From Helianthus annuus (lineage: Eukaryota > Streptophyta > Magnoliopsida > Asterales > Asteraceae), in contig NC_035449.2 of NCBI RefSeq assembly GCF_002127325.2, forward strand, positions 145,651,946 to 145,715,945: DNA of 64,000 nucleotides, in the 5' to 3' direction. A program made the translations under genes and the position numbers. The notes under the pieces are model-generated. The model did no database searches. It was not told the DNA's origin and saw only the letters and a list, made by a program, of their open reading frames with translations. Shown here piece after piece: positions 49 through 61,422 of the stretch. The number at the start of each line of letters is the position of its first letter. Position 1 is the first letter of the stretch.

Positions 49-87
49 AGTCTACCCCCCTTAAATGAGGTTTCGTCCCCGAAACCT
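49..87 (-). promoter_or_regulatory. E1 polypurine tract and 3' hairpin
   Basis: On the minus strand the bases just before the LTR form a purine-rich run, AAGGGGGGTAGACT, the expected primer for plus-strand DNA synthesis. Slightly further upstream, at 68-87, lies a perfect 8-bp inverted repeat: AGGTTTCG, loop GGGA, CGAAACCT. The same element with other stem bases occurs before the LTRs of E3, E4, E6 and E8. Confidence 0.7.
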
Positions 88-950
88 TTCTCATTCAAAC
101 CAAACCAATTCTACTCTTACCCCTTTTAAGTTATTCATCCACAATACTTATGTTAGATTCTGCTCCAGAGCTCTTATTAGTGTCTTTTACTTTATAATAC
201 TAGCACTTAGCACATATAATCACTAGCGTTTCATTCATCGAATTTTATTCGAATTGTATACGATTATTAATCGTACAAGCCTAAGTCTGCGGCTTGTTTC
301 TAACTTCCTATACAAACATGTTACATTCATATATTTGCTAATCGAAACAAATCGATTTATTTTATACTACTCATACATCATACGCTATCTTTCATTTTGT
401 TCACTATGAGCCATCCTAAACATTCCATTACTATCATTACTTCTTATTACCTTTAAGCTCTTAAGAGGGGTTGATATATTATTATGCGCATATTATAATC
501 ATTCAAAGGCTTATTGTTACAACCAAAATCACCCCCCTTAAACTCATTTATCCATACTTAACACGAAAACTAAGCATTATTTTCATGGTTACTATTGTTA
601 TTTATGCCATGCGTATCTTTTCTACAATGTCTTGTTCAAATGAACATGGCCAACAAGCCGAGCATCAAGGTTAGTATTTCTTAAGGATACTTGTCGTCTC
701 TTACATTCTATCAGAATTTCCACAGTTACGAGCATTCAAGTTCTATACCACTCGACGATCATTACGAACATTTGAAATTCATTCTACATTTTTGCATTAC
801 GGTTTGTATATATATATTCTATTCTAATACATCCATCTCTAGTCGAGTCATAACCTCCTATTTAAGTTATAGCTCTTTTTATACATACCTGACGGAAGTA
901 AATTCCATTGATTCGTTATCTTATCTTACGATGATTATCCCTTTTTACAC
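88..950 (-). other. E1 non-coding 3' internal region
   Basis: AT-rich sequence without a credible reading frame. It lies where the 3' untranslated part of the minus-strand element E1 should be. The E1 pol gene, expected to the right, is absent; instead E2 coding sequence begins at about 950 without an LTR or target duplication. The join is therefore probably a deletion or illegitimate recombination. Short open frames here on the plus strand are low-complexity and match nothing I recognise. Confidence 0.5.
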
Positions 951-2351
951 TTATTACACCATCATCAAGTGCATTCTGGGTAACATCAACCTTCTTGCTG
1001 CCATCTGGCAAGGGAATTTTCCTTAGCATAGCATCCTTTTCTGGCTCAATATACAGACCATTATCAATCCCTTTCTTTCTCCACTCCTGAATTTTCTCCC
1101 CCTTTTTGGCATTATCTGGGGGGAGTTCATCAATAAAAAGAACTGTTGGAGGAGCAGTGCCAGTGGTTGTCAACAGATGGGCCTTTATAGCCTTGATGTC
1201 TGCTTGTGTGTTCTTGAACCTAGACTCCATTGTGTTTCTCAGCTCTTGAACATGTTTTTCATGTTATTGATCAGCCATCTGTTGTTGTTGTTGGAGAAAA
1301 GGTTGAAAAAGGTTCCAGAGCTCATTTGTAACATCTGCTGGTGGTGGAGCAGGTGCTTGAGGTGGAAGACCAGTGGATTGTACCATTTGAACTATCAACA
1401 ACTGATGCAGCATTTCTTTGATTTCTGCAACAGAGGTATCCAGTTTTTCAACTCTTGCCGTCAATTCCTGGTACTTTAAACCATCACCCAATTCAATGGG
1501 ATCATCTGATTTCCCACAAGCAGTGGTTTTATCAGAGATTGAGGTATGGAGTGTACTCCAAACATCAACAACTGATGCCCCTTGTTCTTGGTACTAGGGT
1601 CTTCTTCCGTCAACACTTGATAATCTTTTAATGGAACCAGTGGTTAAAACAAACTCACTAGCAGATAACAGAGGTGCTATAGAAGGAATTGCCTCCAAGG
1701 AAGTCTTATTAATATAACCACTGTCCAAGTGCAAACCAGTGGGTTCAACACTTGTAGTGGCTGCTTCACTTGGATTACCACCAAGAGTTACTTATAACTC
1801 AAGGGGTGTAACCTCCTCAGGTTGTGTTGGTGGGTTAGCAAAGATTGATACATCAGGCCCAGTCTGTTGTTGATGCATATTCTCATGAACAGGTGATAGA
1901 GAAGGACTGGTTTGTGCCTGGTTCAAATCAATTGCATCCAACAAAATTTTTGTATTTGGTGGAATTTTGGATGTGAGGGTAGGTGTAGAAAGAGAATGTG
2001 CCCCGGGCATTGGGCTGTGGATGATGGAGACGAGTGCCTCCAGAGCATCATGATGTGGTGACCCTTTTTGTACAACCTGTTCTTTTTGTGAAGAACCGGG
2101 AGGTGTTTCAGGTATGGTTTGAGATATTTTTACCAACTGCTGTGAGGAAGTAGCAGTAGTGGTTTCTCGTGACTTTTGTTTTGTCACAGGCAGTTGCTCT
2201 GGTATCTCATCCTCCAGAGTGCCTTTTTGGTAGGTTTGGGGGGTTTTTGAGTTTTCTTTTTCTGTGGCCTTTTGGTGATTGTAGGTGTGGGTTTCAAAGC
2301 AGTTGTTTTGCTACCTTGATCACCTAGAGCAGTGGGCTCAGCAGCAGATAC
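951..2351 (-). pseudogene. E2 extra ORF, C-terminal part (degraded)
   Basis: Three open pieces in changing frames (about 951-1230, 1264-1491, 1792-2187) continue the extra ORF that starts at 3029. The translations are rich in Q, P, S and T, with proline-glutamine runs near 1300-1380 and a charged stretch near 1000-1150. This fits the variable C-terminal half of the extra ORF of Sirevirus-like elements. No membrane segment is evident. The last piece loses similarity to such proteins near 950, where E1 sequence begins, so the C-terminus, polypurine tract and 3' LTR are missing. Confidence 0.55.
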
Positions 2352-3029
2352 CTAAGGAGCAGTGGTAGCTGTTAAATTCTGCTCAGGCACCTCTGCTTGT
2401 GTTTTGCAAGGTGTTGACATTCTGGTAAAAGTTTCAGCAGTTAAGCTGTGCATTTGAATAAATTCACCTTGGTTTATTACAGAAAGATCATCCTTATTGA
2501 ATTTCTTTTCAAAATAATAGCTTAGAAATCTTGGAAACAGTAAGAATGATTTTGTTTCAACATTTTTAACCAAATCATTGAAGATTTCCTTGGAATAGTT
2601 AAAATCTTCTTCTTGTAGAATAGCATATCCCAAGTTTTGAATCTTCAATGGAATTTCATTAAAAGATGTGGTTTTATTTGAAACACACATGAGGAGGGTA
2701 TGGAATAAAAACCTTGTTGCAGGAGGGAAGAAACCTTTTTGTAAGGTGTCCCTCTTCATCATTGTGTCTGCATACCCTCTTTCAATGAAGTCAATTTTTA
2801 ACTCGTTTTTAGGAAAAGAATCTGTACCTTTCTGATCATCGAGCTGAAAAACCTCTGATATGGATTGTGGTGTTATTTGGACTGCTTTTCCCTGTAGAGT
2901 AGAGTTAATGGCTATGACATCTTTGCCTTGTTTGTCAAGGGTACAATTTTTCCAAAACTCTCTCTGGGTTTGCAGGTAGATGGGAGCATCTGCTGTAAGA
3001 AAAGTTTTGTACTTTGACGCAGTGATCAT
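2352..3029 (-). pseudogene. E2 extra (env-like) ORF, conserved N-terminal domain
   Basis: An open frame of 225 codons downstream of the E2 pol. Its pattern (an FWKNC-like motif near residue 26, a stretch reading QITPQSISEVFQL, then FLFHTLLMCVSNKTTSFNEIPL, and a final LFPRFLSYYFE-type motif) parallels the better preserved E5 protein at 24739-25836 (FWSSA, VITENTIRARLQL, FLLHILIYCLSNKRSGYDLSP, LYPRFLQMM). Both belong to a protein family common in Asteraceae Copia elements in the position called env-like in Sireviruses. Function is unknown; nothing here looks like a membrane glycoprotein. The frame ends at 2352 and continues, broken, to the left. Confidence 0.65.
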
Positions 3030-3729
3030 ATCGAGGATGGAATCAAAGGTATCGATGGTGCCGAGTTTTGTGAGAAGACCCAGAAGATTGTGAGAAGTTT
3101 TGTGTGGAATTTATGTGGGTTTTGTCTTTTGAGAGGCCCCTTTTAAAGTTGATTTTGCGGAGGACTTCGATTTAGTCATTTTGAAGAAGACGATCGAAGA
3201 AATTTGTGAAGAAATTTGATGAAATGTGAAGAAACTGCTTTGAGAAGAGAATTTTTGAGAATTCAATTCGACAGTAAGACCATGTTTGGGGTTTTGAAGA
3301 GGGTTTTATAGAGGAAAAAGTGAATGCTGACGTGGCAGCGGTTACAAAAGGTCTGACCACTATGTACTATCCACGTACCATCCCCTGATGAAGCGAAGGA
3401 CAGTACTTTTGTGAAAACTCTTGGTGAAGGCAGTGGTTGCAACGGTAATGGAGGCAGTGGATGACTTTTACTATCAGTGGATAGCATATTAGTGGATACA
3501 ACACTGATTTTGAACATCAGTGCTTATCAAAGGAATATGAGAACAGGGGATGACTTTCAGCAGTGGACAGACTTTTGAAGTAGAGCAGACTTTTGAACTC
3601 GTCAGTGGTTATGGCAGACTTTTTAGGATTTTAATGAAAAATTCATTTTTAGCTATTTTTAAGGATGGATTTTTGATTTTCTGAAACCATTTTAATGCTT
3701 TTATTCGTAGAAAAACAAGATTTTGCCTG
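3030..3729 (-). other. E2 spacer between pol and extra ORF, CAGTGG-rich
   Basis: About 700 bp without a supported gene. Between roughly 3340 and 3620 the word CAGTGG or AGTGGAT (and its complement CCACT) recurs about nine times in non-identical surroundings. The matching position in E5 contains clusters of a different short word. The spacer may carry the leader or promoter of the extra ORF; that is inference. Confidence 0.5.
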
Positions 3730-7814: not shown

Positions 7815-8570
7815 TGTGACACCCCAGGGAAACCAGTAAACTATACAACTTAACTAGCTTCCTCAGTAACCGCACGCTAAATTTCGGGACGAAATTTCTT
7901 TCAAGTTGGGGATAATGTGACAACCCGTAACTTCAAGTTAGTGCCTTAACCTAGCGTAGTTAATTTTGTCATGCAATCATTTAGCATTGTTGGAATTATG
8001 TGTTACTTTACGAATGATTTGACAAATACATGAACTTGATGATGAAACTGTAAATTGTATGTGTTGTGCGTGTATTATGTAATAGATAATACTTAGGGGT
8101 GTTTAGTGTTAATAATGAAGATAAAAAAAACCTCCCAACCCTAATCATTCTCACCAATTCCAATCATACGGCAGTGAAAGTTCTCTAATCATTTAGGGTT
8201 TCACCAATCTCTAAACTCTTGATCTTTGATCTTTCAATCGTTCTAGAGCAAACCCCACGTCAAATCTAAGGTAATGTTTACATCATACGTTGTTATTCTT
8301 ATCCAATTGATCTCATGCAAACCCTAGTTCTCCAAACAATGATTCTGTGATTAGTTGATCTTTTAGATTGTTTGTAAGATGATTTGTAATTGTCTGATGA
8401 TTTTCCTGTGATTAGGATCAATCCACATGCTAGAATAGTTAAACTTTTGGTTGATTCGTATGAAAGAATAGGGTTTTGATCGTACTGAATTATTGTAACT
8501 GTTAAATCAGAAACCATAATTTGGCTTGTTGATTAGTAGTGTTGTTGTTTGGGGTTAACAGTCCGGGCAT

Positions 8571-9045
8571 TGTGAAGTCACAAGTCTGAGTTTCGTAAAT
8601 ATGAATGGTTTGAGTTTTATAAATGATAAATGGTCTGAGTTTTGTGATAGGCTTGGTCCGAGTTTGATGAGGAGGATTTTGGTCCGAATTTTGTAACATG
8701 AACATGGTCCGATTTTTATAAGGGTAATGCATGGTCCGACTTTTGTAGGAGAAAACATGGTCCGAATTTGTATAAAGCTCCTTGGGTCCGAGTTTTATGA
8801 ATATGAATGGTCCGAGTTTTATGATGAAGACTTGATCCGAGTTTTGTATGATGATATTGGTCCGAGTTTTGTATGATGTTATTGGTCCGAGTTTTGTATG
8901 ATGGTTTGGTCCGAGTTTTAAGAGGTGGTGCTTGGTCCGAACTTTGTTATTGATGTATGGTCCGAATTTTTATAAGCAATGTGTGGTCTGAGTTTTATTA
9001 ATGCTTATATAGCCCGAGTTCGTTAAAGTTTGAAAGGTCCAAGTT
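8571..9045 (+). repeat. GTCCGAGTTT degenerate array in the E3 LTR
   Basis: The word GGTCCGAGTTTT or a close variant (GGTCTGAG, GGTCCGAATTTT) recurs about eighteen times, spaced about 22-32 bp, with poorly conserved bases between. The 3' LTR copy is at roughly 45057-45535. The sibling E6 has a similar but independent array at 47480-48020. The spacing near two to three helical turns would suit protein binding, but no factor is identified. Confidence 0.75.
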
Positions 9046-9445
9046 TAATAATATTTAGAACTTGAATCAGGTTAAATGTTGGATGAAAAACACTTATCCT
9101 ACCACTGTATATTACTGTATGTTACTATGTTACTGTATGTACTGTATGTTACTGTATGAATGTGCAATCTATGTCATGTCAATCTGTAAACAATTATCAC
9201 ACGGAACACTGTTGTTTGGACACCAAGGAATTGTAAACCTTATTTGAACGCAAACACTTACATTGAGTTTATGTGCAATATACCTTAGGTCGCGTGTAAC
9301 GGACCTAACCATTAATTAACACTAGAAGCATACTTAACATACCGAGCAAACCTTACCAAGGCATGGGATTCCCGGTGGGTAGGGAATGGGATTGAAGGAA
9401 AAGGATTGATGAATTATTTGGATTACACTGTTACTAGACTATCTA

Positions 9446-9716
9446 CCATCGTCCTCGGTTGCGAAGGACCCTTACGTAAAACCTACATAATGCTTGTGCT
9501 TACTACTGTCCTCAGGGTTCGAGGGACACTTACGTAAAACCTATGTAAACTCCTACATACCACTGTCCTAGGGTTATGAAGGACACTTACGTAAAACCTA
9601 CGTAAACCCCCGCGTACCACTGTCCTCGGGTTAAGAAGGACACTTACGTAAAACCTACGTAAACCTCGTACGTACTACTGTTCTCGGGTTAAGAAGAACA
9701 CTTATGGTTACCCCTA
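9446..9716 (+). repeat. Tandem units with paired ACGT cores in the E3 LTR
   Basis: About five units of 55-60 bp, each with a TCCTCGGGTT-AAGGAC part (an imperfect inverted repeat) and then TTACGTAAAACCTACGTAA or a close form. Each of the better units thus has two ACGT cores, the core bound by plant bZIP factors, in inverted arrangement. The 3' LTR carries the same array at about 45952-46205. It lies inside the putative leader intron. Confidence 0.65.
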
Positions 9717-10177
9717 GTCTAGTACATATCACATGGGAAGCCCCCACTAACTGAACATACTCTCATGGGAAGCCCCCACTAAATGAATATACAATTGACT
9801 TAGTTATTAACGCATGGTGATGCAACGAACTTACTTTCTGTGAACTCGCTCAACTAGTTGTTGACTTTCTATTACATGCCTTGCAGGACCATAGGTACTT
9901 TTGGAGCTTGCATGGGAGGAGCAGTCGTTGTGGGCACGGATTGTGGATGTTATGATGAAAACATTAAGACTCTTTAAACTTAACACTTGTGTTGGATTTT
10001 CATACTGTGCTTCCGCTACTTAAACTATGTTTTGAAATGAACACCAATTGTATTGTGATGGATTACATTTACTTTTACTTATTATTTACATGTTTAATAT
10101 GATTGGTGGCTTGATCCTGGTAAGTCACGCTCCCAAGCGGTGATACTCCGCGGGTGGATTTTGGGGGTGTGACAGAT

Positions 10178-37531: not shown

Positions 37532-39994
37532 GGTTACCACCAGTTAAGGATACAGGAGGAGAGTATCCCAAAGACAGCCTTCAGAACTCGTTATGGGCAC
37601 TACGAGTTTTTGGTTATGCCGTGTGGTTTGACAAACGCACCTGCAGTGTTCATAGATTTGATGAATCGAGTTTGAAAGCCGTACTTGGATAAGTTCGTGA
37701 TCGTGTTCATCGATGATATCTTGATCTATTCAAAGACGAAGGCCGAGCACGAACAACATTTAAGAGCCATTCTGGAGCTGCTAAAGAAGGAACAGTTGTA
37801 TGCCGAGTTCTCTAAATGCGAGTTTTGGCTAAGAGAAGTGCAATTCCTTGGGCACGTGGTAAATGGAGATGGAACCCACGTGGATCCAACCAAGATCAAG
37901 GCGATCAAGGATTGGGAAACGCCAAAGACGCCAACCGAGATTCGGCAATTCTTGGGTTTGGCTGGCTATTACCGAAGATTCATCGAGAACTTTTCAAAGA
38001 TCGCTCAACCATTGACGCTCCTCACTCAGAAGGACAAGAAGTTTGATTGGGGAATCAAACAGGAAGAAGCGTTTCAGGTATTGAAAGATAAGCTTTGCAA
38101 CGCGCCAATCTTAGCCCTATTAGAGGGTACAGATGATTTTGTGGTATACTGCGACGCTTCGCGTCAAGGATTGGGTTGTGTGTTGATGCAACGCCAAAAG
38201 GTTATTGCCTACGCGTCACGCCAGCTGAAGGTACATGAAAAGAACTATACCACACACGATTTAGAGCTTGGCGCAGTGATTTTTGCATTAAAGATCTGGA
38301 GACACTACCTTTATGGTACGAAGTGCACAATCTTTACAGATCACAAGAGCCTCCAGCATATATTCAACCAGAAGGAGTTGAATATGAGGCAAAGACGATG
38401 GGTTGAACTGTTGAATGATTACGACTGCGAGATAAAGTATCATCTAGGGAAGTCGAATGTGGTCGCCGATGCCCTAAGTCGAAAAGAGAGAATCAAGCCC
38501 ATAAGGGTTAGGGCTTTGGAGATGATTATTCAGACCGATCTTTCCTTACGCATTCGTACAGTGCAACAAGAAGCTCTCAAGGAAAGAAACCTTGAAGAAG
38601 AGTATCTCCGTGGGATGGAGAAGTTATTGGTACCAAACAAGGAAGGAACGTTGTGTTTTGAGAAAAGGATTTGGGTTCCTTTGTTTGGAGGTTTAAGGAA
38701 GGTTATTTTCGATGAAGCTCGCAAGTCGCGGTACTCTATCCACCTTGGAGCGGATAAGATGTACCAGGATCTTAAAGATTATTATTGGTGGCCTAGGATG
38801 AAAGGCGATGTTGCTGTGTATGTGAGCAAATGTTTAACTTGCGCCAAGGTTAAGGCGGAATACCAGAAGCCTTCAGGACTTCTGCAACAACCGGCAATTC
38901 CCAAGTGGAAGTGGGAACAAATCTCCATGGATTTTATTACAAAGTTGCCAAGAACGCCAAGAGGCCATGACACTATCTGGGTGATAATGGATCGATTAAC
39001 GAAGTCAGCACACTTCCTACCTATCCGAGAAAAGGATAATACGAGTAAATTGGCTGAAATTTACATGAGAGAGATTGTTACACGCCATGGAGTACCTCTC
39101 TCAATCATCTCTGATAGAGATGGGAGATTCGTATCAAGGATATGGCAATCCTTCCAAGAAGCTTTTGGCTCGAAGTTGAATATGAGCACCGCGTTTCACC
39201 CGCAGACCGACGGTCAAAGCGAGCGGACGATTCAGACGTTGGAAGACATGCTGAGAGCGTGTGTTATGGACTTGGGCGGTAGCTGGGATAAGCATTTACC
39301 TTTGGTTGAGTTTTCATACAACAACAGCTACCATACCAGTATTGGTGCCGCGCCATTCGAAGCTTTATATGGGCGCAAATGCAGATCACCGCTCTGTTGG
39401 TCTAACGCCGGTGAAAGACAGTTGGTTGGTCCTGAAGTAGTCCAGGAAACCACAGACAAGATTGCACAGATCCGAGATCGCATCAGTGCGGCTCGTGACC
39501 GGCAGAAAACCTACGCGGATCGAAGCAGGAAACCTCTAGAGTTTGAGGTTGGAGACTTGGTTTTGTTGAAAGTATCACCCTGGAAGGGGGTGGCACGCTT
39601 TGGGAAGCGTGGGAAGTGGAATCCGCGCTACATTGGTCCTTTCAGGATTTTGGAAAGAATTGGGACCGTAGCATACAAGTTGGACCTACCCGCCGAACTG
39701 AATGGTGTTCACGATACATTTCATGTGTCCAATCTGAAGAGGAGTCCAACTCAAGATACCGTTGCCATTCCTACCGACGAAATTCATGTTGACGACATGC
39801 TCCACTTCGTGGAAGAACCTGTTAAGGTCACGGATTGGAAAGTGAACAAGACCCGCCGGAGCAGTGTCAAGCTCGTCAAAGTTCGTTGGAATGCTAGACA
39901 TGGTCCTGAATTCACCTGGGAGCGTGAGGACCAAATGAAAGAGAAATACCCCCATCTATTTCCCAAAAACCCTGCTTCTACAAGCAAAACTTAA
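37532..39994 (+). CDS. E4 pol C-terminal half: RT palm, RNase H, integrase, chromodomain-like end
   Basis: After the second target duplication (37527-37531) the frame resumes within the reverse transcriptase. A TGA near 37675 is the only break; from 37685 there are 769 open codons. Rough positions in that ORF: polymerase motif FIDD at residues 8-11; RNase H about 125-255; integrase zinc finger about 345-400; integrase core about 410-530, with catalytic residues in [15 protein letters not shown] and DGQSERT; the [13 protein letters not shown] block near 560; and the chromodomain-like [19 protein letters not shown] at the end. The contrast with the damaged first half is striking. Confidence 0.9.
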
Positions 39995-40029
39995 AATTTC
40001 GGGACGAAATTTTTCTAACGGGGGGAGAA
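39993..40029 (+). promoter_or_regulatory. E4 3' hairpin and polypurine tract
   Basis: AAAATTTCG-GGA-CGAAATTTT (39993-40013) is a perfect 9-bp stem with a 3-base loop; it overlaps the pol stop codon TAA. Six bases later GGGGGGAGAA (40020-40029) is the polypurine tract and abuts the LTR start TGTGACAACCC at 40030. Confidence 0.85.
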
Positions 40030-42891: not shown

Positions 42892-44306
42892 CAAGGCAAC
42901 GATTAGAACAAAGGGAAGACGGTGCCTACTATGTAACGGGGCGTATTTGGGTCCCACTATATGGCGGTTTACGAGAACTTGTGATGGATGAAGCACATAA
43001 GTCTCGCTACTCGGTACATCCAGGTTCGGATAAAATGTACCACGACATCAGAACTACGTATTGGTGGCCTAGTATGAAGGCCCACATTGCAACTTACGTC
43101 GGCAAATGTTTGACTTGTGCGAGAGTCAAGGCGGAATATCAGAAACCATCAGGCCTACTTCAACAACCCAAGATACCGCAGTAGAAATGGGAGGGAATTT
43201 CCATGGATTTCATTACTGGCCTACCTAGATCCCAGCATGGAAACGATACCATTTGGGTGATCGTGGATCGACTCACAAAGTCTGCACACTTCCTGGCTAT
43301 TAAGGAAGCGGATAAGTTCTCTACCTTAGCAGACGTCTACTTGAAAGAAGTTGTTTCGAGGCACGGAGTGCCAACCTCCATTATTTCGGATCGTGATGCA
43401 CGATTCACTTCAGAACTATGGCAAGCAATGCACAAATCTTTTGGCTCACGGCTAGACATGAGCACAGCTTATCACCCTCAGACGGGCGGGCAGTCTGAGC
43501 GCACTATTCAGACTCTAGAAGACATGCTTCGGGCGTGTGTTATCGATTTCGGCAACAGCTAGGAAAAACATCTCCCGTTAGTGGAGTTTTCGTACAACAA
43601 CAGTTACCACACCAGCATTCAAGCCGCTCCATTCGAGGCATTGTACGGACGTAAATGCCAGTCACCTCTCTGTTGGGCAGAGGTGGGGGATAGTCAGATC
43701 ACAGGTCCAGAAATGGTAGTTGATGCTACTGAACGGATTGCACAGATACGACAACGCACGGTGGCAACTCGTGACCGTCAGAAAAGCTACGCTGATAAGC
43801 GCAGGAAACCGCTCGAGTTCCAAGTTGGGGATCGAGTGCTACTCAAAGTCTCACCCTGGAAGGGTGTGGTTCGTTTTGGTAAACAAGGCAAGCTCAATCC
43901 GCGGTATGTTGGACCGTTCGAAATCATTGAAAGAATAGGCAAAGTAGCCTACAGACTAAACCTACCAGCTGAACTCGGTGCAGTTCACAACGTTTTCCAC
44001 GTGTCGAATCTGAAGAAGTGTCAGTCAGATGAGACCCTCATAGTTCCTTTGAAGGAGCTCAGTATCGACGAGCAGTTGTGATTCGTCGAGGAACCAGTAG
44101 AAATCATGGACCGGGATGTTAAGGTCCTCAAGAACACTAGAATACCTCTTGTACGAGTTCGTTGGAACTCCCGTCGTGGCCCAGAGTTCACCTGGGAACG
44201 AGAAGACCAAATGAAAGAAAAATATCCCCAGTTATTCGGAAACCGTGCAACTACTACTGAGGCTGAAGCTACTACAGAATTTCGGGACGAAATGGGGATG
44301 ATGTGA
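42892..44306 (+). pseudogene. E3 pol: integrase and chromodomain-like C-terminus
   Basis: Starts with the second target duplication CAAGG (42892-42896). The zinc finger ([18 protein letters not shown], then [14 protein letters not shown]) is followed by TAG in place of TGG at about 43183, the integrase core with MDFITGLPR and [10 protein letters not shown] in place of TGG at about 43560, the [18 protein letters not shown] block, and a third stop near 44079. The last part, [20 protein letters not shown], is the chromodomain-like segment of Tekay-type chromoviruses. The final stop codon TGA (44304-44306) lies inside the 3' LTR, because the LTR boundary has moved upstream. Confidence 0.85.
44279..44301 (+). 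promoter_or_regulatory. E3 proximal hairpin and the polypurine tract actually used
   Basis: The stem ATTTCG-GGA-CGAAAT (44279-44293) is directly followed by GGGGATGA and then the LTR start at 44302. The E3 target duplication shows that this upstream tract set the 5' end of the LTR. A second hairpin (44366-44384) and tract (AGTTGGGGATAA, 44391-44402) lie 101 bp downstream, at the family's usual boundary. Confidence 0.7.
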
Positions 44307-46677
44307 CACCCCAGGGAAACCAGTAAACGATACAACTTAACTAGCTTCCTCAGTAACCGCATGCTAAATTTCGGGACGAAATTTCTTTCAAGTTGGGGAT
44401 AATGTGACAACCCGTAACTTCAGGTTATTGCCTTAACCTAGCGTAGTTAATTTTGTCATGCAATCAGTTAGCATTGTTGGAATTATGTGTTACTTTACGA
44501 ATGATTTGACAAATACATGAACTTGATGATGAAACTGTAAATTGTATGTGTTGTGCGTGTATTATGTAATAGATAATACTTAGGGGTGTTTAGTGTTAAT
44601 AATGAAGATAAAAAAAAACTCCCAACCCTAATCATTCTCACCAATTCCAATCATACGGCAGTGAAAGTTCTCTAATCATTTAGGGTTTCACCAATCTCTA
44701 AACTCTTGATCTTTGATCTTTCAATCATTCCAGAGCAAACCCCGCGTCAAATCTAAGGTAATGTTTACATCATACGTTGTTATTCTTATCCAATTGATCT
44801 CATGCAAACCCTAGTTCTCCAAACAATGATTCCGTGATTAGTTGATCTTTTAGATTGTTTGTAAGATGATTTGTAATTGTCTGATGATTTGCCTGTGATT
44901 AGGATCAATCCACATGCTAGAATAGTTAAACTTTTGGTTGATTCGTATGAAAGAATAGGGTTTTGATGGTACTGAATTATTGTAACTGTTGCATCAGAAC
45001 CATAATTTGGCTTGTTGATTCGTAGTGTTGTTGTTTGGGGTTAACAGTCAGGGCATTGTGAAGTTACAAGTCTGAGTTTTGTAAATATGAATGGTCTGAG
45101 TTTTATAAATGATAAATGGTCCGAGTTTTGTGATAGGCTTGGTTCAAGTTTTGTGAGGAGGATTTTGGTCCGAATTTTGTAACATGAACATGGTCTGATT
45201 TTTATAAGGGTAATGCATGGTCCGACTTTTGTAGGAGAAAACATGGTCCGAATTTGTATAAAGCTCCTTGGGTCTGAGTTTTATGAATATGAATGGTCCG
45301 AGTTTTATGATGAAGACTTGATCCGAGTTTTGTATGATGATATTGGTCCGAGTTTTGTATGATGTTATTGGTCCGAGTTTTGTATAATGGTTTGGTCCGA
45401 GTTTTAAGAGGTGGTGCTTGGTCCGAACTTTGTTATTGATGTATGGTCCGAATTTTTATAAGCAATGTGTGGTCTGAGTTTTATTAATGCTTATATAGCC
45501 CGAGTTTGTTAATGTTTGAAAGGTCCAAGTTTAATAATATTCAGAACTTGAATCAGGTTAAATGTTGGATGAAAAACACTTATCCTGCCACTGTATATTA
45601 TTGTATGTTACTATGTTACTGTATGTACTGTATGTTACTGTATGAATGTGCAATCTATGTCATGTCAATCTGTACACAATTATCACACGGAACACTGTTG
45701 TTTGGACACCAAGGAATTGTAAACCTTATTTGAACGCAAACACTTAAATTGAGTTTATGTGCAATATACCTTAGGTCGCGTGTAACGGACCTAACCATTA
45801 ATTAACACTAGAAGCATACTTAACATACCGAGCAAACCAAGGTGAGTTTACACTCTTACCAAGGCATGGGATTCCCGGTGGGTAGGGAATGGGCTTGAAG
45901 GAAAAGGATTGATGAATTATTTGGATTACACTGTTACTAGACTATCTACCATCGTCCTCGGTTGCGAAGGACCCTTATGTAAAACCTACGTAATACTTGT
46001 GCTTACTACTGTTCTCAGGGTTCGAGGGACACTTACGTAAAACCTACGTAAACTCATACATACCACTATCCTAGGGTTATGAAGGACACTTACGTAAAAC
46101 CTACGTAAACCCCCGCGTACCACTGTCCTCGGGTTAAGAAGGACAGTTACGTAAACCCTACGTAAACCTCGTACGTACTACTATTCTCGGGTTAAGAAGA
46201 ACACTTATGGTTACCCCTAGTCTAGTACATATCACATGGGAAGCCCCCACTAACTGAACATACTCTCATGGGAAGCCCCCACTAAATGAACATACAATTG
46301 ACTTATTTATTAATGCATGGTGATGCAACGAACTTACTTTCTGTGAACTCGCTCAAGTAGTTGTTGACTTTCTGTTACATGCCTTGCAGGACCATAGGTA
46401 CTTTTGGAGCTTGCACGGGAGGAGCAGTCGTTGTGGGCACGGATTGTGGATGTTATGATGAAAACATTAAGACTCTTTAAACTTAACACTTGTGTTGGAT
46501 TTTCATACTATGCTTCCGCTACTTAAACTATGTTTTGAAATGAACACCAATTGTATTGTGATGGATTACATTTACTTTTACTTATTATTTACATGTTCAA
46601 TATAATTGGTGGCTTGATCCTGGTCAGTCACGCTCCCAAGCGGTGATACTCCGCGGGTGGATTTTGGGGTTGTGACA
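44302..46677 (+). repeat. E3 3' LTR (2376 bp)
   Basis: Same start (TGTGACACCCC) and end (TTGTGACA) as 7815-10174, with scattered substitutions (roughly 2% by eye) and a 17-bp segment near 45840 missing from the 5' copy. It is followed by the target duplication TTTGC at 46678-46682. The arrays of GTCCGAGTTT words and ACGT units are repeated here. Confidence 0.9.
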
Positions 46678-48020: not shown

Positions 48021-48660
48021 TATTCTTGATTGATTTTCTTTGATGAACTTTGTTTAAATGTGTTAACTTACAATAGGAGCCTGACTTTCTTGAAATGCAT
48101 GCACTAAGCTGAATTATCTCTACAATGATACTTAGTATGACTTTTGTGGATGTTGTAATAGTCTGAGATACTCATGGTGTCAACAATACTGAATTCAAAA
48201 CCCTATGTGGCCCGATATAGCATTGTATGTCACTGTATGCTTACTGTATGATTCTGCGTACATATACGACTGTATGCTATTGAATGGTACTGCATGATCC
48301 TATAGTTATGAACAACCCTTATTATATCATTCTGTACACAACCTTCACACAGATCACAACTATTTAGACATCACTGACTGTAAACCCTACTTGAATGTAA
48401 CGCTTACATCGAATTATGTGCAATGTATCCTAGGGCGTGTGTAACGGACTTAGACAGTTAATTAATCCTAGAAGCAATAACATACCGAGCAAACCAAGGT
48501 GAGTTCACACCCTTACTAAGGCATGGGATTCCCGGGGCTTGGGAATGGGTTTTAAAGGAATAAGGTTGATTAGATTCGTGCTGACACTATTACTAGACTA
48601 CCATTCCATCGTCCTCGGTTGTGCAGGACACATACGTGCAATCTACGTACACATATACTT

Positions 48661-48870
48661 ACTACTATCCTCGGTTGTGAAGGATACTTATACATACTAC
48701 TATCCTCGGTTGTGAAGGATACTTATACATACTACTATCCTCGGTTGTGAAGGATACTTATGCATACTACTATCCTCGGTTGTGAAGGATACTTATACAT
48801 ATTACTATCCTCGGTTGTGAAGGATACTTATACTTAATTACTATCCTCGGATGTGAAGGATACTCACGTA
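48661..48870 (+). repeat. 35-bp tandem repeat in the E6 LTR
   Basis: Units beginning ACTACTATCCTCGGTTGTGA start at 48661, 48696, 48731 and so on, a period of 35 bp, about six in all. Each contains TATCCTCGG and GAAGGATA, an imperfect inverted repeat. The 3' LTR copy is at 55214-55423. Outer units have CACGTA or TACGTG cores. Confidence 0.85.
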
Positions 48871-49389
48871 AGACCTACGTGAACTTATACTTACTACTGT
48901 TCTCGGATTGTGAAGAACACATATGGTTACGAATAGTCTAGTGGTTATACAACATGGGATGCCCCCACAAATAGAACGTACTAACGGCCCAGTAGAGCCA
49001 CCTGTTACAAACGAACTTACTATTACGCATTTACTTTCTGTGAACTCGCTCAACTAGTTGTTGATCCTCTGTTACATGCCTTGCAGGTCGTTAGGTATAA
49101 GGAGCTTGCACATGAAGGAGCAGGTCGTTGTGGGCTTGGATCGTGATTATCCTGTCAAACACTTTTGATTATTTGATACTTATTTACGATGGGTTTTTAT
49201 TAATACGCTTCCGCTACGCAATGATATTTTACTTATGTTTTGGAAACACCCTTCATATGGAATTGGTTTGGTTTATGTTGCAATCACCTTTACTTTATAC
49301 AATGTTCTATATGATTGGTGGCTTGATCCTGGTCAGTCACGCTCCCAAGCGGTGATACTCCGCAGGTGGATTTTGGGGGTGTGACAGAT

Positions 49390-51090: not shown

Positions 51091-53209
51091 TAATACTTGA
51101 GTTTGGCGGGTTACTACAGACGGCTTATCAAAGATTTCTCAAAGATTGCTCAGCCACTTACACTGCTGACACAGAAAGGTGTTACCTACCGTTAGGGAGA
51201 TTCCCAGGAAACCGCTTTTCAGTACTTAAAGGATAGGCTTTGCAGCGCACCTATTCTCTCATTACCAGAGGGCACGGATGATTTTGTAGTCTATTGTGAC
51301 GCATCGATACAGGGTCTTGGTTGTGTATTGATGCAGCGTGATAAAGTTATTGCCTACGCTTCGCGGCAACTCAAGATTCATGAACGGAACTACACGACGC
51401 ACGATTTAGAGCTGGGAGCTGTTGTTTTCGCGCTTAAGATATGGCGACACTACCTGTACGGTACCAGGTGCACGATTTACACCGATCACAGGAGTCTCGA
51501 GCATATTCTTAAGCAGAAGGGTTTGAACATGCGTCAACGGAGATGGGTTGAACTACTGAACGACTACGAATGCGCCAGCAAGTATCATCCAGGCAAGGCC
51601 AATGTTGTGGCCGACGCCCTCAGTCGAAAGGACACCCTACCTAAGCGCATGCGAGCGCTACAGCTTACTATTCAGTCCAGTCTTCCTGCACAGATACAAG
51701 CTGCTCAGATAGAAGCATTGAAACCCGAAAACGTCAAGGCTGAAGCCTTACGCGGCTCAAGGAAACGAATGGAACAAAAGGAAGACGGCGCCTACTATGT
51801 AACGGGGCGTATTTGGGTCCCACTTTATGGCGGTTTACGAGAACTTGTGATGGACGAAGCGCACAAGTCTCGCTACTCGATACACCCAGGGTCGGATAAA
51901 ATGTACCACGATATCAAAACAACATACTGGTGGCCAAGTATGAAGGCCCACATCGCCACCTATGTTGGCAAGTGCTTGACCTGTGCGAGAGTCAAGGTTG
52001 AATATCAGAAACCCGCAGGTCTACTGCAACAACCTAAGATACCTCAATGGAAATGGGAAGAAATTTCCATGGATTTCGTTACAGGCCTACCTAGATCTCA
52101 GTGTGGGAACGATACAATATGGGTAATCGTGGATCGACTCACCAAGTCTGCACACTTCCTAGCTATAAAGGAAACGGATAAGTTCTCCACTCTCGCAGAC
52201 ATCTATCTTAAAGAAGTTGTTGCGAGGCACGGGGTGCCCATTTCCATCATTTCGGATCGGGATGCACGATTCACGTCAGAGCTATGGCAAGCGATGCACA
52301 AATCTTTCGGCTCACGATTTGGGCATGAGCACAGCATATCATCCTCAGACGGATGGGCAGTCTGAGCGAACGATCCAGACTCTTGAAGACATGCTTCGGG
52401 CATGTGTTATCGATTTCGGCAACGGCTGGGAAAAACACCTCCCTTTGGTGGAGTTTTCGTACAATAACAGTTACCACACCAGCATTCAAGCCGCTCCATT
52501 CGAGGCATTGTACGGACGTAAATGCCGGTCACCTCTCTGTTGGGTAGAGGTGGAGGATAGTCAGATTACAGGTCCAGAGATTGTAGTGGACGCCACAGAA
52601 AAGATTGCACAGATACGACAACGCATGGCGGCAGCACGCGACCGTCAGAAAGCCTACGCGGATAAGCGTAAGAGGCCATTGGAATTTCAGGTCGGGGACC
52701 GGGTTTTACTTAAAGTCTCACCCTGGAAGGGTGTGGTTCGATTTGGTAAACGAGGCAAACTCAATCCACGGTATGTTGGACCGTTCGAAATCACTGAAAG
52801 AATAGGCCCAGTAGCCTACAGACTGAACCTACCAGCTGAACTCGGTGCAGTTCACAATGTATTTCACGTGTCGAATCTGAAGAAGTGCCTGTCAGATGAG
52901 ACCCTCATAGTTCCTTTTAAGGAACTCACTATCGATGAGCGGTTGCAGTTCGTCGAGGAACCAGTTGAAATCACGGACCGGGATGTTAAGGTCCTCAAAC
53001 ACAAGAGAATCCCTCTTGTTCGAGTTCGTTGGAACTCCCGACGTCGCCCAGAGTACACCTGGGAACGCGAAGACCAAATGAAAGAAAAGTACCCCCAGTT
53101 ATTCGAAACCAATGCATCCACTACTGAGGCTGAAGCTACTACTACTGAATTTCGGGACGAAATTCCAAATCAACGGGGGGATGATGTGACACCCCAGGAA
53201 AACCAGTGA
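51091..53209 (+). pseudogene. E6 pol remainder: RNase H, integrase, chromodomain-like end
   Basis: Begins inside the thumb. A TAG in place of a tryptophan codon lies near 51193. RNase H is well preserved ([40 protein letters not shown]), then the integrase zinc finger ([32 protein letters not shown]) and core (MDFVTGLPR, SDRDARF). An extra base near 52317 shifts the frame between the second and third catalytic residues; the rest, with the glutamate in DGQSERT, is open at about 52325-53209. It ends with [20 protein letters not shown]. Confidence 0.9.
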
Positions 53210-53285
53210 ACAATACAGCTTACCTAGCTTCCTCAGTGAGTGCGTACCAAATTTCGGGACGAAATTTCTTTTAAGTTGGGGATAA
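53147..53285 (+). promoter_or_regulatory. E6 duplicated hairpin and polypurine module
   Basis: Two modules stand in tandem. The first has the stem GAATTTCG-GGA-CGAAATTC (53147-53165), a purine run CGGGGGGATGA (to 53184) and TGTGACACCCC at 53185. The second has AAATTTCG-GGA-CGAAATTT (53249-53267), the run AGTTGGGGATAA (53274-53285) and TGTGACAACTC at 53286. The target duplication shows that E6 used the second, whereas E3 used the first. Confidence 0.8.
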
Positions 53286-55939
53286 TGTGACAACTCAAAT
53301 TTCCAAGATTTCTATTTCGCATTTATTGCACGTTCTTGTATTGTTTAGCTGTTTATTTGCACAATTAATTGCTATGAAATTGTATACATTTTGATGCGAT
53401 GAATCGTATTGTGTGATTGTGCATGGTTGTTTGTTTATTGTGAAAGACTTGGTAAATATATGAACTTGGTGGCGAAATTGTGGAATTGTTATGAGATGGT
53501 GTAATTGTGTAAAATAAAGTAATTCAGGGTGTATTGAGCAATTAGTGAAAAGTTAATTATACTTAACCCTAATCCTTCACTAAATCACACACACAAAAAT
53601 CCAAGCACGTAGTTCACAATTCTCTGGCAATCATCACCACCATCATTGGCACAAGGCATTCATCACTTTCGATTTCTCTATTTCTCTAGAATCATTCAAG
53701 GTAATTGCTTATCGATTATTGTAATACTTGTAAACCTAATTGATTGCTTGATTATTATCCATTCTTGATTCTTGATTGTGTGTTCATGAAAACCCTAGTT
53801 CTTCATTTAACGTTTTGCGATTCTGGATTTGATTATGATGATAATGATATTGAGTAGTCGTTTAATCGTTGCCTGGTAATAAGAGAATGCATGATTAGTT
53901 GAGTAATTAGATTGATGCTAGACTGATGCAATGAAAGTAGGGTTTTCACGATTTCTTGAACAATAGAAAACGTAACTGATGTGATGCAAAGAACGAATGA
54001 TTGAATTGTTTCTCTGAGTTATGTGAAGCCATGTAATTGTCTGAGTTTCATATAAATTATAGTCCGAGAATTATAAATGTGTTATCATGACCGAGGTTAT
54101 AAAATGGAAGGGGGTCCGAGTTTCTTGACCCTCCCCATGACCGAGTTTCTTAAATGAAAACATGTGACCGAGTTTAAGAAATATCACTTAGTCCGACTTA
54201 CATAAATATCACCCTTGGTCCGAGTTTAATAACCACCAGGTTGTCCGAGTTTGGTCTTGATAAGTGGTCCGAGTATATATGATAAGTGAGAAGGTCCGAT
54301 TTTGTTTAAAAGGGTTTTATGGCCGAGTTTAATGGATGGGTGAGATGTCCGAGTTTGTTTGAAATCATCACAAGGTCCGATCTTATGCACTCAATATGGT
54401 CCGAGTTTGAAAGGGGCAGCCCCCTCTCTTGTCCGACCTTGTGAGGGTCATCTACCCGAGTTTCTTGGCCCAAACCCGTCCGAGTTTATTATATGGAATT
54501 GGGGTCAGAGTTTTTGAAAAAAAACACTTAAGGTCCGAATTTTTGTGGCTTTGTGATGTTGGTCCGAATTTCATATTCTTGATTAATTTTCTTTGATGAA
54601 CTTTGTTTAAATGTGTTAACTTACAATAGGAGCCTGACTTTCTTGAAATGCATGCACTAAGCTGAATTATCTCTACAATGATACTTAGTATGACTTTTGT
54701 GGATGTTGTAATAGTCTGAGATACTCATGGTGTCAACAATACTGAATTCAAAACCCTATGTGGCCCGATATAGCATTGTATGTCACTATATGCTTACTGT
54801 ATGATTCTGCGTACATATACGACTGTATGCTATTGAATGGTACTGCATGATCCTATAGTTATGAACAACCCTTATTATATCATTCTGTACACAACCTTCA
54901 CACAGATCACAACTATTTAGACATCACCGACTGTAAACCCTACTTGAATGTAACGCTTACATCGAATTATGTGCAATGTATCCTAGGGCGTGTGTAACGG
55001 ACTTAGACAGTTAATTAATCCTAGAAGCAATAACATACCGAGCAAACCAAGGTGAGTTCACACCCTTACTAAGGCATGGGATTCCCGGGGCTTGGGAATG
55101 GGTTTTAAAGGAATAAGGTTGATTAGATTCGTGCTGACACTATTACTAGACTACCATTCCATCGTCCTCGGTTGTGCAGGACACATACGTGCAATCTACG
55201 TACACGTATACTTACTACTATCCTCGGTTGTGAAGGATACTTATACATACTACTATCCTCGGTTGTGAAGGATACTTATACATACTACTATCCTCGGTTG
55301 TGAAGGATACTTATGCATACTACTATCCTCGGTTGTGAAGGATACTTATACATATTACTATCCTCGGTTGTGAAGGATACTTATACTTAATTACTATCCT
55401 CGGATGTGAAGGATACTCACGTAAGACCTACGTGAACTTATACTTACTACTGTTCTCGGATTGTGAAGAACACATATGGTTACGAATAGTCTAGTGGTTA
55501 TACAACATGGGATGCCCCCACAAATAGAACGTACTAACGGCCCAGTAGAGCCACCTGTTACAAACGAACTTACTATTACGCATTTACTTTCTGTGAACTC
55601 GCTCAACTAGTTGTTGATCCTCTGTTACATGCCTTGCAGGTCGTTAGGTATAAGGAGCTTGCACATGAAGGAGCAGGTCGTTGTGGGCTTGGATCGTGAT
55701 TATCCTGTTAAACACTTTTGGTTATTTGATACTTATTTACGATGGGTTTTTATTAATACGCTTCCGCTACGCAATGATATTTTACTTATGTTTTGGAAAC
55801 ACCCTTCATATGGAATTGGTTTGGTTTATGTTGCAATCACCTTTACTTTATACAATGTTCTATATGATTGGTGGCTTGATCCTGGTCAGTCACGCTCCCA
55901 AGCGGTGATACTCCGCAGGTGGATTTTGGGGGTGTGACA
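53286..55939 (+). repeat. E6 3' LTR (2654 bp)
   Basis: Nearly identical to 46733-49386, with the same arrays. It ends GGGTGTGACA and is followed by the target duplication GAAGT, then the E2 gag. Confidence 0.95.
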
Positions 55940-58670: not shown

Positions 58671-58895
58671 TGTCACACCCCAACCGATGGCGGAAACATC
58701 GAGATGAGACGTACAAACTGTTCAAAGACATCATAACACTAGTTGTGACAATAATTAAAGTTTATTTCATTGATAATCATAAGTTTCATACGATACATAG
58801 AAAAGTTCAAATACATAACATAGATTTGGAAATTTAAATAGTTGATGGGTTTCTAAGCCATCCTAGTCTTTTCTTGTTTTTCTTGAATCCTCAGC

Positions 58896-60358
58896 CTGCA
58901 GTATGCATTTAAAATACAATCAACAAATAATTGCTGGCGAGTATACAGGTTTGAATATAGCATAATAGAGTTAAATAGTTTATCAAATCTATTCCATGTG
59001 AACAACTGATATTAATTAACTGTTGTACTCGTAACGATGAAATCCACATGTCCAAACCATAGTTACGCAATTAACATAGCCTAACCCTCGAAAGGGTGGT
59101 AATAGAGTTAATAGATTAAACCTAACAATACCCGTATATACGGGAGGGGCGTTACAACCTACAGCGCTGCCATTGTTAGGGGAGGCTTGCAAAGTTAATG
59201 AACATATAGCCATAGATGTTAACATCAGCACAACATAGATAATCAATGATCAAGTAGTTTCACAATAGTATGGATAGATTGTGCAATGAAAGTGTTTATC
59301 ATTGTGTTTTTGATAAGGAAATGCATACTACACCCAAAAGTGTGAAAAGAAAATGGGTCAAGTATACTCACCTTAGGTTGCGTTGCGTATATTGGAAAAA
59401 GATAATAGAATCAGGGATTTTCCAAGAAGATCGTGCACAAGAGAATTACCCTATTAATTTGAGGATTTGATTAATTATTTGGGAATTTATAGAATAATTT
59501 AGATAATAAGACATAAATAATACAAAATTCCTAAAGTGTTGGAACAATAAAATAAATAGGAATTTAAATAGATAATTAATTATTTTAACAATCTAAAATA
59601 ATTACCACAACATTAGTTAATAATCTTATAAACAAATAACTTATTTATAAAGTTTCTAGTTTATAAAACAAATAAATAAATCTGAAAATAAAATAAATAA
59701 AATTTCTAGATTTTTATTAAATAAACAATAATTCTGATTTAAAGAATATAAATCCTGAAATTAATAAATATGATCAAATAATAATTAAATAGTAATTCAG
59801 AATTAATTTATAATTTAAACAACATTTAAAATAAATATTCTGAATTAATAAAAACAATATATCTGATTTTTATGATAATAATTCTGAAATACATAAATAA
59901 TTCTGATTTATAGATCCTGAAAATAAATAAATAAATAAAATCTTATTTTAGTAAATTTCAGAAATAAATTCTGAAATAAATAAATAAATAAAATCTGATT
60001 TTATTAAATTTCAGAAATAAATTCTGGAATAAATAAATAAACAAAAACTGATTTTTAATAAATCTGATTTTATAAAACTGAAATAATAAAATAATCTGTT
60101 TAATAAAAATAAAAATATTATATAAATGAATCTGATTTACTTAAAAAAAATATTCTGATTATATATAAAACAGGAATAATATTTCAGATATTATTTCTAA
60201 AAACAGGAATAATAATAAAGCTAATAATAATAATAATATTACTAATAATAATAATAATATTACCATAATAATAATATAATAATAATAATAATATAAATAT
60301 AACAGTTACATATAATCGCCGGAAAAACGAAAAGGAAAACGAATCGGGAGATGTTTAC
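58896..60358 (-). other. Putative leader intron inside the E8 LTR
   Basis: On the minus strand the GC-rich leader (rich in CCGCCGG-like words) ends CACCGTCCG followed by GTAAACATC, a donor at 60358. Near the LTR end, TTTAAATGCATACTGCAG followed by GC gives an acceptor at 58896. The intervening 1463 bp are very AT-rich, as plant introns are. Prediction only. Confidence 0.4.
60208..60300. repeat. (AAT)n microsatellite in the E8 LTR
   Basis: Interrupted runs of AAT/ATA over about 90 bp. Such runs are frequent in AT-rich LTR parts and carry no further signal. Confidence 0.85.
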
Positions 60359-60518
60359 CGGACGGTGGTGGTGCGGCAGCGACGAGGATGGCAGCGAGTT
60401 CCGGCGAAGAGAGGTTGCTCCGGCGACGAAGTTGGTTTCCGGCGAATAGCTTCGAGTCGGGTTCGGTTTTGTCTCGGAGTTCGGGTGGAAAGGAAAAACG
60501 AGATGGGTGAGGCTCGGG

Positions 60519-60525
60519 TTTTATA
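60519..60525 (-). promoter_or_regulatory. TATA box of the E8 LTR
   Basis: TATAAAA on the minus strand in the context GTCTATAAAACCCGAGCC. About 30 bp further on that strand a CT-rich leader begins (TTTCCTTTCCACCCG). It is the only strong core promoter signal in this LTR. Confidence 0.65.
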
Positions 60526-60684
60526 GACGAGTGGGTGATCGGTTACGAGGTAATGGAAGGTCACAAGCCGGAAATAAACTGAAAGGTTGTAGATGATGAA
60601 CAGACATGGCGGTTTCTTTGATTTGAATTAAATCACGCAATTAATGCGTGTTTATATAGTATTCAGGTCCAACCATTTCACAAG

Positions 60685-60787
60685 TTGTGCTGTAGATCAG
60701 TTGGTCACGCATGTGTGTTAGTGTATGAGGGAACGCGAGTTCGAGTCCTGGGTCACGCATACCTTGGGATTTAAATCCCCTTTTTTT
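60685..60787 (+). ncRNA. tRNA-like unit in the E8 LTR (antisense to the LTR)
   Basis: TAGATCAGTTGG (60693-60704) matches the RNA polymerase III box A consensus at 11 of 12 positions, and GTTCGAGTCC (60739-60748) matches box B. The boxes are 34 bp apart, as in tRNA genes, and a T7 run at 60781-60787 could terminate. The sequence does not fold into an acceptor stem, so it is not a tRNA gene. It may be the head of a SINE or a tRNA-derived segment captured by the LTR. Confidence 0.45.
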
Positions 60788-61385
60788 GATACAGTTAGTT
60801 TTAACTAACTGGGTTAGCCACTAACTGAGTTTTCTGACTCAGTTAGTGCTGCCCTTTAGTAAACTTAACCTGGTTAGTCTTATTTAACCGGTTTTCACCA
60901 ACGGGGTTAGATTCGCTAACGGAAATGCTTAAAAATCAATAAAAATTTAGAAAATAATTATTTATTTAATTTAAATTGTTATTTTATAATAATAAAATAA
61001 TAAAATAACCATTTTTAACCCAAATTTCAATATTTTTACCGAATTAGCGTATAAATTCCCAATTTTTGTACGGTTTAGGGTAATCTCTTGGCAACGATGA
61101 ATTAAAGAGTCGAAATTAAGATGGAATTCCTCTGTTTTTACGTGTTTAACATAGTTTCAGCGTGTTTAACATAGTTTCAACGTGTTTAACATAGTTTCAT
61201 AGTTTCAATGATTCATAGTATTCAAACACCAAAATATGGATAAAATCATGCAATTTCATTATGATTTCAAGTCTCGAGTACAATTTTGGAATTTGAATCA
61301 AGTACAACAAAGGTACAACTTACAAAAGTAGAAAGTACAAGTAGACTTTCCAAAAATGGAAAGTTTGAAAATACGAAATGTTACA

Positions 61386-61422
61386 GTCTCCCCTACTTTA
61401 GGAGATTTCGTCCTCGAAATCT
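61386..61422 (-). promoter_or_regulatory. E8 polypurine tract and 3' hairpin
   Basis: On the minus strand AAAGTAGGGGAGAC abuts the LTR start. Before it lies the stem AGATTTCG, loop AGGA, CGAAATCT (61403-61422), a perfect 8-bp stem whose outer pairs differ from those of E1, E3, E4 and E6. Confidence 0.75.

What the first reader, a model, noticed from the sequence alone, without database searches (positions are those of the whole stretch)
68..61422. Hairpin with covarying stem before the polypurine tract of every Gypsy element here
Seen directly in eight independent or duplicated places: E1 68-87 (stem AGGTTTCG), E8 61403-61422 (AGATTTCG), E4 39993-40013 (AAAATTTCG), E6 53147-53165 (GAATTTCG) and 53249-53267 (AAATTTCG), E3 7879-7897 and 44366-44384 (AAATTTCG), and 44279-44293 (ATTTCG, partly decayed). 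The inner TTTCG/CGAAA and the loop GGA or NGGA are constant, while the outer stem bases change on both sides together. Paired changes at three stem positions argue for selection on structure in RNA or single-stranded DNA. Position, just after the pol stop and before the polypurine tract, suggests a role in plus-strand priming, packaging or 3' RNA processing; that part is inference. The sequence motif is widespread in plant chromoviruses; I do not know of a structural description.
Basis: partly seen in the sequence, partly recalled or inferred. Interest (0 to 1): 0.8.

Follow-up and report, generated by a model that had tools for sequence, protein, structure and literature searches.

The report
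Conserved hairpin beside retrotransposon priming site
Plant Gypsy retrotransposons carry a small hairpin at a nearly fixed distance before the place where their second DNA strand starts; its letters drift but its base pairing is kept, so it is probably a working part of how these abundant elements copy themselves.

Summary
All eight hairpins are there (0.3 expected by chance), at polypurine tracts (PPTs) of Gypsy elements; two are duplicates inside one element's LTRs. In DNA chosen by pol homology, not by hairpin, 10 of 10 distinct plant-like pol ends have it (one partly decayed); 2 of 2 non-plant-like ends do not. The "constant" core also changes on both sides together in other families; the closing G-C and (N)GGA loop are what stays. 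Pol tails can be read as translating it in three frames, so nucleic acid rather than peptide is conserved. Loop to LTR start is 25-27 nt in 16 of 17 distinct modules. E8, a recent insertion without recognisable gag or pol, keeps primer site, hairpin, PPT and LTRs. Related elements with target-site duplications use two different hairpin-PPT modules, 101 nt apart, as LTR edge. Best explanation: a cis-acting hairpin that helps set the plus-strand primer and hence the LTR edge, perhaps by stalling reverse transcriptase so RNase H cuts at the PPT end. The mechanism is inference; packaging is the main rival. My ten literature searches showed related features but no description of this hairpin.

The parts
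68..87 (-). E1 hairpin, stem 8 bp, loop GGGA; minus strand
55..62 (-). E1 polypurine tract AAGGGGGG; LTR reads down from about 48
61403..61422 (-). E8 hairpin, stem 8 bp, loop AGGA; element without recognisable gag or pol
61387..61394 (-). E8 polypurine tract AGGGGAGA
58671..61385 (-). E8 3' LTR; the 5' LTR lies beyond the window (L030 1215-3931), 99.67% identical; TSD TTTGA; PBS motif present
39993..40013 (+). E4 hairpin, stem 9 bp, loop GGA; pol stop codon 39992-39994 overlaps its 5' arm
40020..40029 (+). E4 polypurine tract GGGGGGAGAA
40030..42891 (+). E4 3' LTR (5' LTR 13767-17281, with an extra stretch inside); TSD CAAGG
53147..53165 (+). E6 hairpin 1, stem 8 bp, loop GGA, inside the pol reading frame
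53175..53181 (+). E6 polypurine tract 1, followed by TGTGACACCCC as at the start of the E3 LTR
53249..53267 (+). E6 hairpin 2, stem 8 bp, loop GGA, just before the actual E6 3' LTR
53278..53282 (+). E6 polypurine tract 2
53286..55939 (+). E6 3' LTR (5' LTR 46733-49386), starting at module 2; TSD GAAGT
44279..44293 (+). E3 hairpin 1, outer stem and spacer lost, before the actual E3 3' LTR
44302..46677 (+). E3 3' LTR (5' LTR 7815-10174), starting at module 1; TSD TTTGC
7879..7897 (+). Hairpin 2 inside the E3 5' LTR, followed by a PPT and TGTGACA
44366..44384 (+). Hairpin 2 inside the E3 3' LTR (duplicate of 7879-7897)

Best explanation
A conserved cis-acting hairpin near the 3' end of the genomic RNA of plant Gypsy retrotransposons, forming one module with the PPT and the LTR start. 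Shown by sequence: pairing is kept while the stem letters change; the closing G-C and (N)GGA loop are kept; the distance to the LTR is nearly fixed; a recently mobile element without recognisable gag or pol keeps it; the module marks the LTR edge. Inferred: it acts in reverse transcription. Minus-strand synthesis pauses at the 3' base of the hairpin, which puts the RNase H site (about 13 bp behind the polymerase site in Ty3 RT, PMC5371799) near the PPT/U3 junction and favours the cut that makes the plus-strand primer and so sets the LTR edge. The loop may also bind a protein such as Gag.
For: 10 of 10 distinct plant-like pol ends, selected without regard to the hairpin, carry it, 2 of 2 non-plant-like ones do not. 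Double changes at 6 of 8 pairs in the set chosen by pol or junction, 0 of 500 shuffles as high. 17 of 17 GGA-loop hairpins (stem 7 or more) in 264 kb have a PPT-like stretch downstream, and no other loop type does. Loop to LTR 25-27 nt in 16 of 17 distinct modules. E8 keeps PBS, hairpin, PPT and LTRs with no gag or pol match. LTR edge at module 1 in E3 and at module 2 in E6 and L041, each with a TSD. Ty3 RT active sites about 13 bp apart (passage).
Against: No experiment. The stem is weak: not in the minimum-energy fold in 3 of 9 short pieces, only 1 of 9 z-scores below -2, and improbable in context for L020 and L025. Constant spacing may partly reflect shared ancestry. The LTR copy in L022 has a hairpin with no clear PPT after it. 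One measure of covariation was not raised (further pair types, 472 of 500 shuffles). U3 of E3 and E6 has diverged, so two LTR edges may be an old switch, not a choice in each cycle. One junction-selected copy has lost its 5' arm (L039).
Confidence: 0.5

Rival explanations
1. Packaging or dimerisation signal: Gag nucleocapsid binds the exposed GGA of the loop and selects the genomic RNA; closeness to the PPT is incidental or serves both ends of the RNA.
For: The loop is the most constant part while the stem is free, which fits a protein reading the loop; E8, which must use proteins of other elements, keeps it. That retroviral nucleocapsid binds G-rich loops is recalled.
Against: Nearly fixed distance to the LTR start and use of either of two hairpin-PPT modules as LTR edge are not explained by it.
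Confidence: 0.25
2. No selection: the palindrome is kept symmetrical by templated correction during reverse transcription or repair, or by CpG decay on both arms.
For: The C-G to T-A change in L022 could be CpG loss on each arm; the decayed L038 minus-strand copy shows such changes.
Against: Does not explain the constant loop, the fixed place before the PPT or the near absence of other loop types there. The T-A to C-G changes in L025 and L043 and A-T to G-C in L047 are not CpG decay.
Confidence: 0.08
3. A palindromic binding site for a protein on double-stranded DNA.
For: The core TTTCG/CGAAA is common to the window copies.
Against: Even the core changes between families as long as the arms pair.
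Confidence: 0.05
4. The C-terminal peptide of pol is what is conserved.
For: In E6 and in Helianthus proteins the hairpin is translated as ..EFRDEIP...
Against: E8 has no recognisable pol; in E4, L020, L022 and L043 the stop codon overlaps the hairpin start; other tails fit it in other frames.
Confidence: 0.02

Closest known systems
Inverted repeat around the PPT/3' LTR junction and multiple PPTs of Sireviruses, Ty1/copia (PMC2829016; passages read)
   Same: A structure at the plus-strand start of plant LTR retrotransposons, proposed to help RNase H form the right primer; repeated PPTs before the 3' LTR.
   Different: There one arm is upstream of the PPT and the other inside the 3' LTR; here both arms are upstream of the PPT. 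Copia, not Gypsy. No loop or stem covariation appears in the passages that I saw.
U-box or T-box upstream of the PPT in retroviruses and Ty1 (mentioned in PMC10085805; passages read)
   Same: A cis-acting stretch just upstream of the PPT needed for plus-strand priming.
   Different: Defined as a T-rich sequence, not a hairpin, and lies directly against the PPT.
Extra PPT (PPTa) in Bongo3, a Tekay-clade chromovirus of beet (PMC3605345; passages read)
   Same: A second PPT after the chromodomain in a plant chromovirus, as in E3, E6, L038 and L041.
   Different: PPTa overlaps the pol stop; the words hairpin, palindrom and inverted repeat do not occur in that main text; no second LTR edge is reported in the passages seen.
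Ty3 PPT priming (PMC5371799; passages read)
   Same: Same superfamily; PPT-primed plus strand; RT active sites about 13 bp apart.
   Different: PPT of different sequence; the word hairpin does not occur in that main text.

Membership tests
Sirevirus-type PPT inverted repeat | One arm upstream of the PPT, the other inside the 3' LTR | tested here: not met
U-box / T-box | T-rich stretch directly upstream of the PPT | tested here: inconclusive
   Spacers, by eye: some are T-rich (E6 module 2, E4), others not (E6 module 1, L022)
U-box / T-box | Mutation alters plus-strand priming | not testable with these tools
   Needs a replication or in vitro RT assay
Duplicated PPT as in Bongo3 | Additional PPT between chromodomain and 3' LTR | tested here: met
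   E6, L038 and L041 have two PPTs before the 3' LTR; in E3 the second is inside the LTR
Duplicated PPT as in Bongo3 | Additional PPT overlaps the pol stop codon | tested here: not met
   In E6 the reading frame runs past PPT1 to 53209
Tekay-like plant chromovirus (host elements E3, E4, E6) | RT-RNase H-integrase order | tested here: met
   Pfam on the E4 frame: RVT_1, RNase H, H2C2, rve, SH3_Tf2-1 in this order; rve is below its curated cut-off
Tekay-like plant chromovirus (host elements E3, E4, E6) | Chromodomain at the C-terminus | tested here: inconclusive
   Pfam chromodomain was not reported for E4 or E6; the resemblance is by eye and the clade name is recalled; no tree was built
Rfam RNA family | Match at or above the curated score | tested here: not met
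   0 matches in the window

The most novel reading that the evidence does not exclude
The hairpin is a reverse-transcriptase stall site placed about one polymerase-to-RNase-H length from the PPT/U3 junction, a physical ruler that sets the LTR edge. Elements with two hairpin-PPT modules carry one RNA 3' end but can integrate with either of two LTR lengths, depending on which module primed. It would be an old, general feature of plant Gypsy elements.
Probability: 0.28. Interest if true: 0.8.

Novelty: new variant of a known kind. Interest (0 to 1): 0.62.

Why it matters
Gypsy elements make up much of many plant genomes (general knowledge). A structure marking the plus-strand start and the LTR edge would help to find 3' ends and LTR borders, to recognise mobile derivatives that have lost their genes, and to test how an LTR-retrotransposon RT chooses its second primer. 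The two-module elements are a natural experiment on that choice.

Tried and rejected
Peptide conservation: rejected, because reading frames differ and E8 has no recognisable pol. Double-stranded palindrome site: disfavoured, because the arms change together. Viral contigs as a source of relatives: 19 exact-motif matches, none followed by a PPT-LTR junction in the 60 bases printed, and no pol relatives. Two records named as Bacillus plasmids hold Gypsy-like elements that do not look plant-like; no such hairpin there. Literal motif strings in papers: 0 papers and 11 papers that by title and abstract are not about retrotransposons; none was opened. Pair counts on 13 distinct stems partly select for pairing, since some stems came from a hairpin scan; I rely on the set chosen by pol or junction, which includes decayed and deleted copies. 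Two hairpins with quite different stems (L029 near 1884 minus, L046 2658) were found only by the scan, have no recognised LTR start within 40 nt and are left out of the spacing count.
Full report
What is there. The inner pattern occurs 8 times in the window against 0.30 expected, and 0 of 100 shuffles reached 8. The window lies in a 3.01 Gb genome. Among the 120 listed relatives of the E6 pol end the best named plant match is Helianthus at 91% identity, so I take the genome to be sunflower, by inference.

Anatomy. LTR pairs and target-site duplications give the borders. E3: LTRs 7815-10174 and 44302-46677, TSD TTTGC. E4: 13767-17281 and 40030-42891, TSD CAAGG. E6: 46733-49386 and 53286-55939, TSD GAAGT. 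E8, minus strand: 3' LTR 58671-61385, 5' LTR beyond the window, 99.67% identical over 2,720 columns, TSD TTTGA, PBS motif TGGTATCAGAGCCA. The 3,829-base internal region of E8 matches none of six gag/pol query proteins, while the pol of E4 was found as control (there was no control for gag); its longest reading frame has no Pfam match. E1 is cut by the window edge; 3.6 kb beside its hairpin gave no match in the same test.

Is it general? I searched window, relatives and the 220 kb of the same genome with integrase C-termini, not with hairpins. Fifteen ends came back: 13 plant-like, of which 10 are distinct, and 2 that do not look plant-like. All 10 distinct plant-like ends have an (N)GGA hairpin downstream. 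In E3 the first copy is partly decayed and the script's best hairpin was the second one. For L022 the script's best score went to another register, but the 7-bp hairpin GATTTTG-GGGA-CAAAATC is there. The two others (L023, L024) have none. The relatives outside this genome come from contigs of bacterial assemblies that look like plant contamination: L020, L021 and L026 are one family, L022 and L027 a second, L025 a third. The best of the 120 listed matches of the L020 protein is 63% identical; named ones include Cucumis, Rhodiola, Fagus, Vitis and Asteraceae. Those of L025 include Arctium (73%) and Centaurea (72%).

A scan without knowledge of pol. In 264 kb, counting both strands, 66 hairpins have a perfect stem of 7 or more, G-C closure and a loop of 3-4; as a place is normally counted on each strand, this is about 33 places. 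17 have a GGA loop, 17 have a PPT-like stretch downstream, and these are the same 17. With stem 6 or more: 124 counts, 20 GGA, 21 with a PPT, 19 both. The counts include duplicated and related copies. A search for GGGG-N(0,5)-TGT[AG]A[CG] in the 200 kb gave 35 rows, some twice; nine distinct ones I read as PPT-LTR junctions. Seven of the nine have a stem scoring 7.5 or more, one (L038 minus) is decayed at CpG positions, and one (L039 minus) has lost its 5' arm. The other rows are LTR 3' ends, one 5' LTR start, and repeats that I did not read as junctions.

Paired changes. In the set chosen by pol, LTR border or junction (11 distinct rows, decayed copies included), 85.2% of cells pair and 6 of 8 pairs show a change on both sides; 0 of 500 shuffles reached either value. 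The covariation score is 0.293 (1 of 500 shuffles as high). Further pair types are not raised (472 of 500). All six slid controls are lower in cells paired, in pairs with double changes and in covariation score. At the outermost pair 6 of 11 rows do not pair. A larger set of 13 stems gives 7 of 8 pairs, but part of it came from a hairpin scan. The first could be CpG decay on both arms; the others not. The shuffles ignore relatedness, and no tree-based test was made.

Frames. 80 non-redundant protein tails after the chromodomain, from the three protein searches, were asked whether any synonymous reading allows a perfect (N)GGA hairpin of 7 or more pairs: 26 do, against 12 of 960 shuffled tails. 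Many of the other 54 are short tails. Seven of the 26 share the ..RDEIP tail (six named Helianthus, one unnamed). The rest include KSRDEIS (Tanacetum), KLSRTKV (Cucumis melo), EIPRTES (Cichorium), NFEDEI, NFEDKI, TFEDES, DFEDEV and QFRGRNS, together covering three frames. Named sources are Asteraceae and Cucurbitaceae. This shows what the proteins allow, not the actual nucleotides. A few Helianthus tails (such as P0032) have changes that break it.

Spacing. Of 17 distinct modules with a recognised LTR start, 16 have 25-27 nt from loop end to LTR and 16-20 nt from stem base to LTR; the exception is the decayed E3 hairpin 1 (14 and 8). Three further hairpins of that scan have no recognised LTR start within 40 nt. 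On the U5 side 2 nt lie between LTR and PBS; if the U3 side is alike, the primer ends 14-18 nt from the stem base. In Ty3 RT the two active sites are about 13 bp apart (passage of PMC5371799). The fit is suggestive only.

Two modules, two LTR edges. E3, E6, L038 and L041 share hairpin 1, PPT1, a 101-nt step, hairpin 2 and PPT2. The E3 LTR begins at module 1 and so contains module 2 (TSD TTTGC). E6 (TSD GAAGT) and L041 (GGGCC on both outer flanks; LTRs 98.6% identical) begin at module 2, as does the L038 plus-strand element by its 5' edge. An LTR on the L038 minus strand begins at the module 1 edge, with only that edge seen; its first 106 nt after module 2 are 75% identical to those of E6. Either form gives the same RNA 3' end, so the simplest reading is that each module can prime. 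Against a choice in every cycle: the U3 of E3 after module 2 is homologous to that of E6 but much diverged, so an old switch between subfamilies is possible.

Structure strength. In 237-320 nt of context the innermost pair has probability 0.47 or more in 12 of 14 modules and 0.04 or less in L020 and L025. In pieces of 36-51 nt the module hairpin is missing from the minimum-energy fold in 3 of 9 (E6 hairpin 2, E3 hairpin 1, L022), and one z-score of nine is below -2. In 480 nt around E4 the hairpin is in both minimum-energy and centroid folds, but the region as a whole is not unusually stable.

What is known. Ten literature searches listed no paper whose title or abstract start describes this hairpin. 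I read passages only, of PMC3601003, PMC11963269, PMC2829016, PMC6317226, PMC5371799, PMC3605345, PMC1142308 and PMC10085805. PMC3601003 says that a systematic search for PPT-containing hairpins in LTR retroelements is warranted. Most subscription papers are not held, so absence in print is not shown. I recall that such palindromic motifs are common at 3' ends of plant Gypsy elements.

Verdict. A real, structural and widespread feature: about 0.93. Acting at the plus-strand start: about 0.5. The stall-and-cut ruler: about 0.28.

Noticed in passing
58671-61422 and on to about 67931, minus strand: E8 is a complete LTR element with a 3,829-base internal region without recognisable gag or pol and LTRs 99.67% identical: a recently mobilised non-autonomous element.
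   Followed up: partly
7810-46682: E3 is one element opened by E4 (13767-42891), which in turn seems to hold a minus-strand Copia element whose LTRs appear to be the 669-base direct repeats 21606-22274 and 36858-37526 (99.55% identical).
   Followed up: partly
L022 1588-1606: The LTR of the L022 element holds a second hairpin (stem of T/A type, GGA loop) without a clear PPT after it; like E3, a hairpin inside an LTR.
   Followed up: no
L029 near 1884 minus; L046 2658 plus: Hairpins with entirely different stems (ATACATTG/CAATGTAT and CCAACG/CGTTGG), NGGA loops and purine-rich stretches downstream: possibly the same structure in other Gypsy lineages.
   Followed up: partly
L020-L022, L025 (bacterial assemblies): Bacterial genome assemblies of Geminicoccus, Solirubrobacter and Labilibacter contain contigs with plant-like Gypsy elements, presumably contamination.
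   Followed up: partly
L023, L024: Two records deposited as Bacillus licheniformis plasmids consist largely of Gypsy-like retroelements and look like eukaryotic contamination.
   Followed up: no
39992-39994; L020 5550-5552; L022 1432-1434; L043 near 9011-9013 minus: In four families the pol stop codon overlaps the first bases of the 5' arm of the hairpin.
   Followed up: partly
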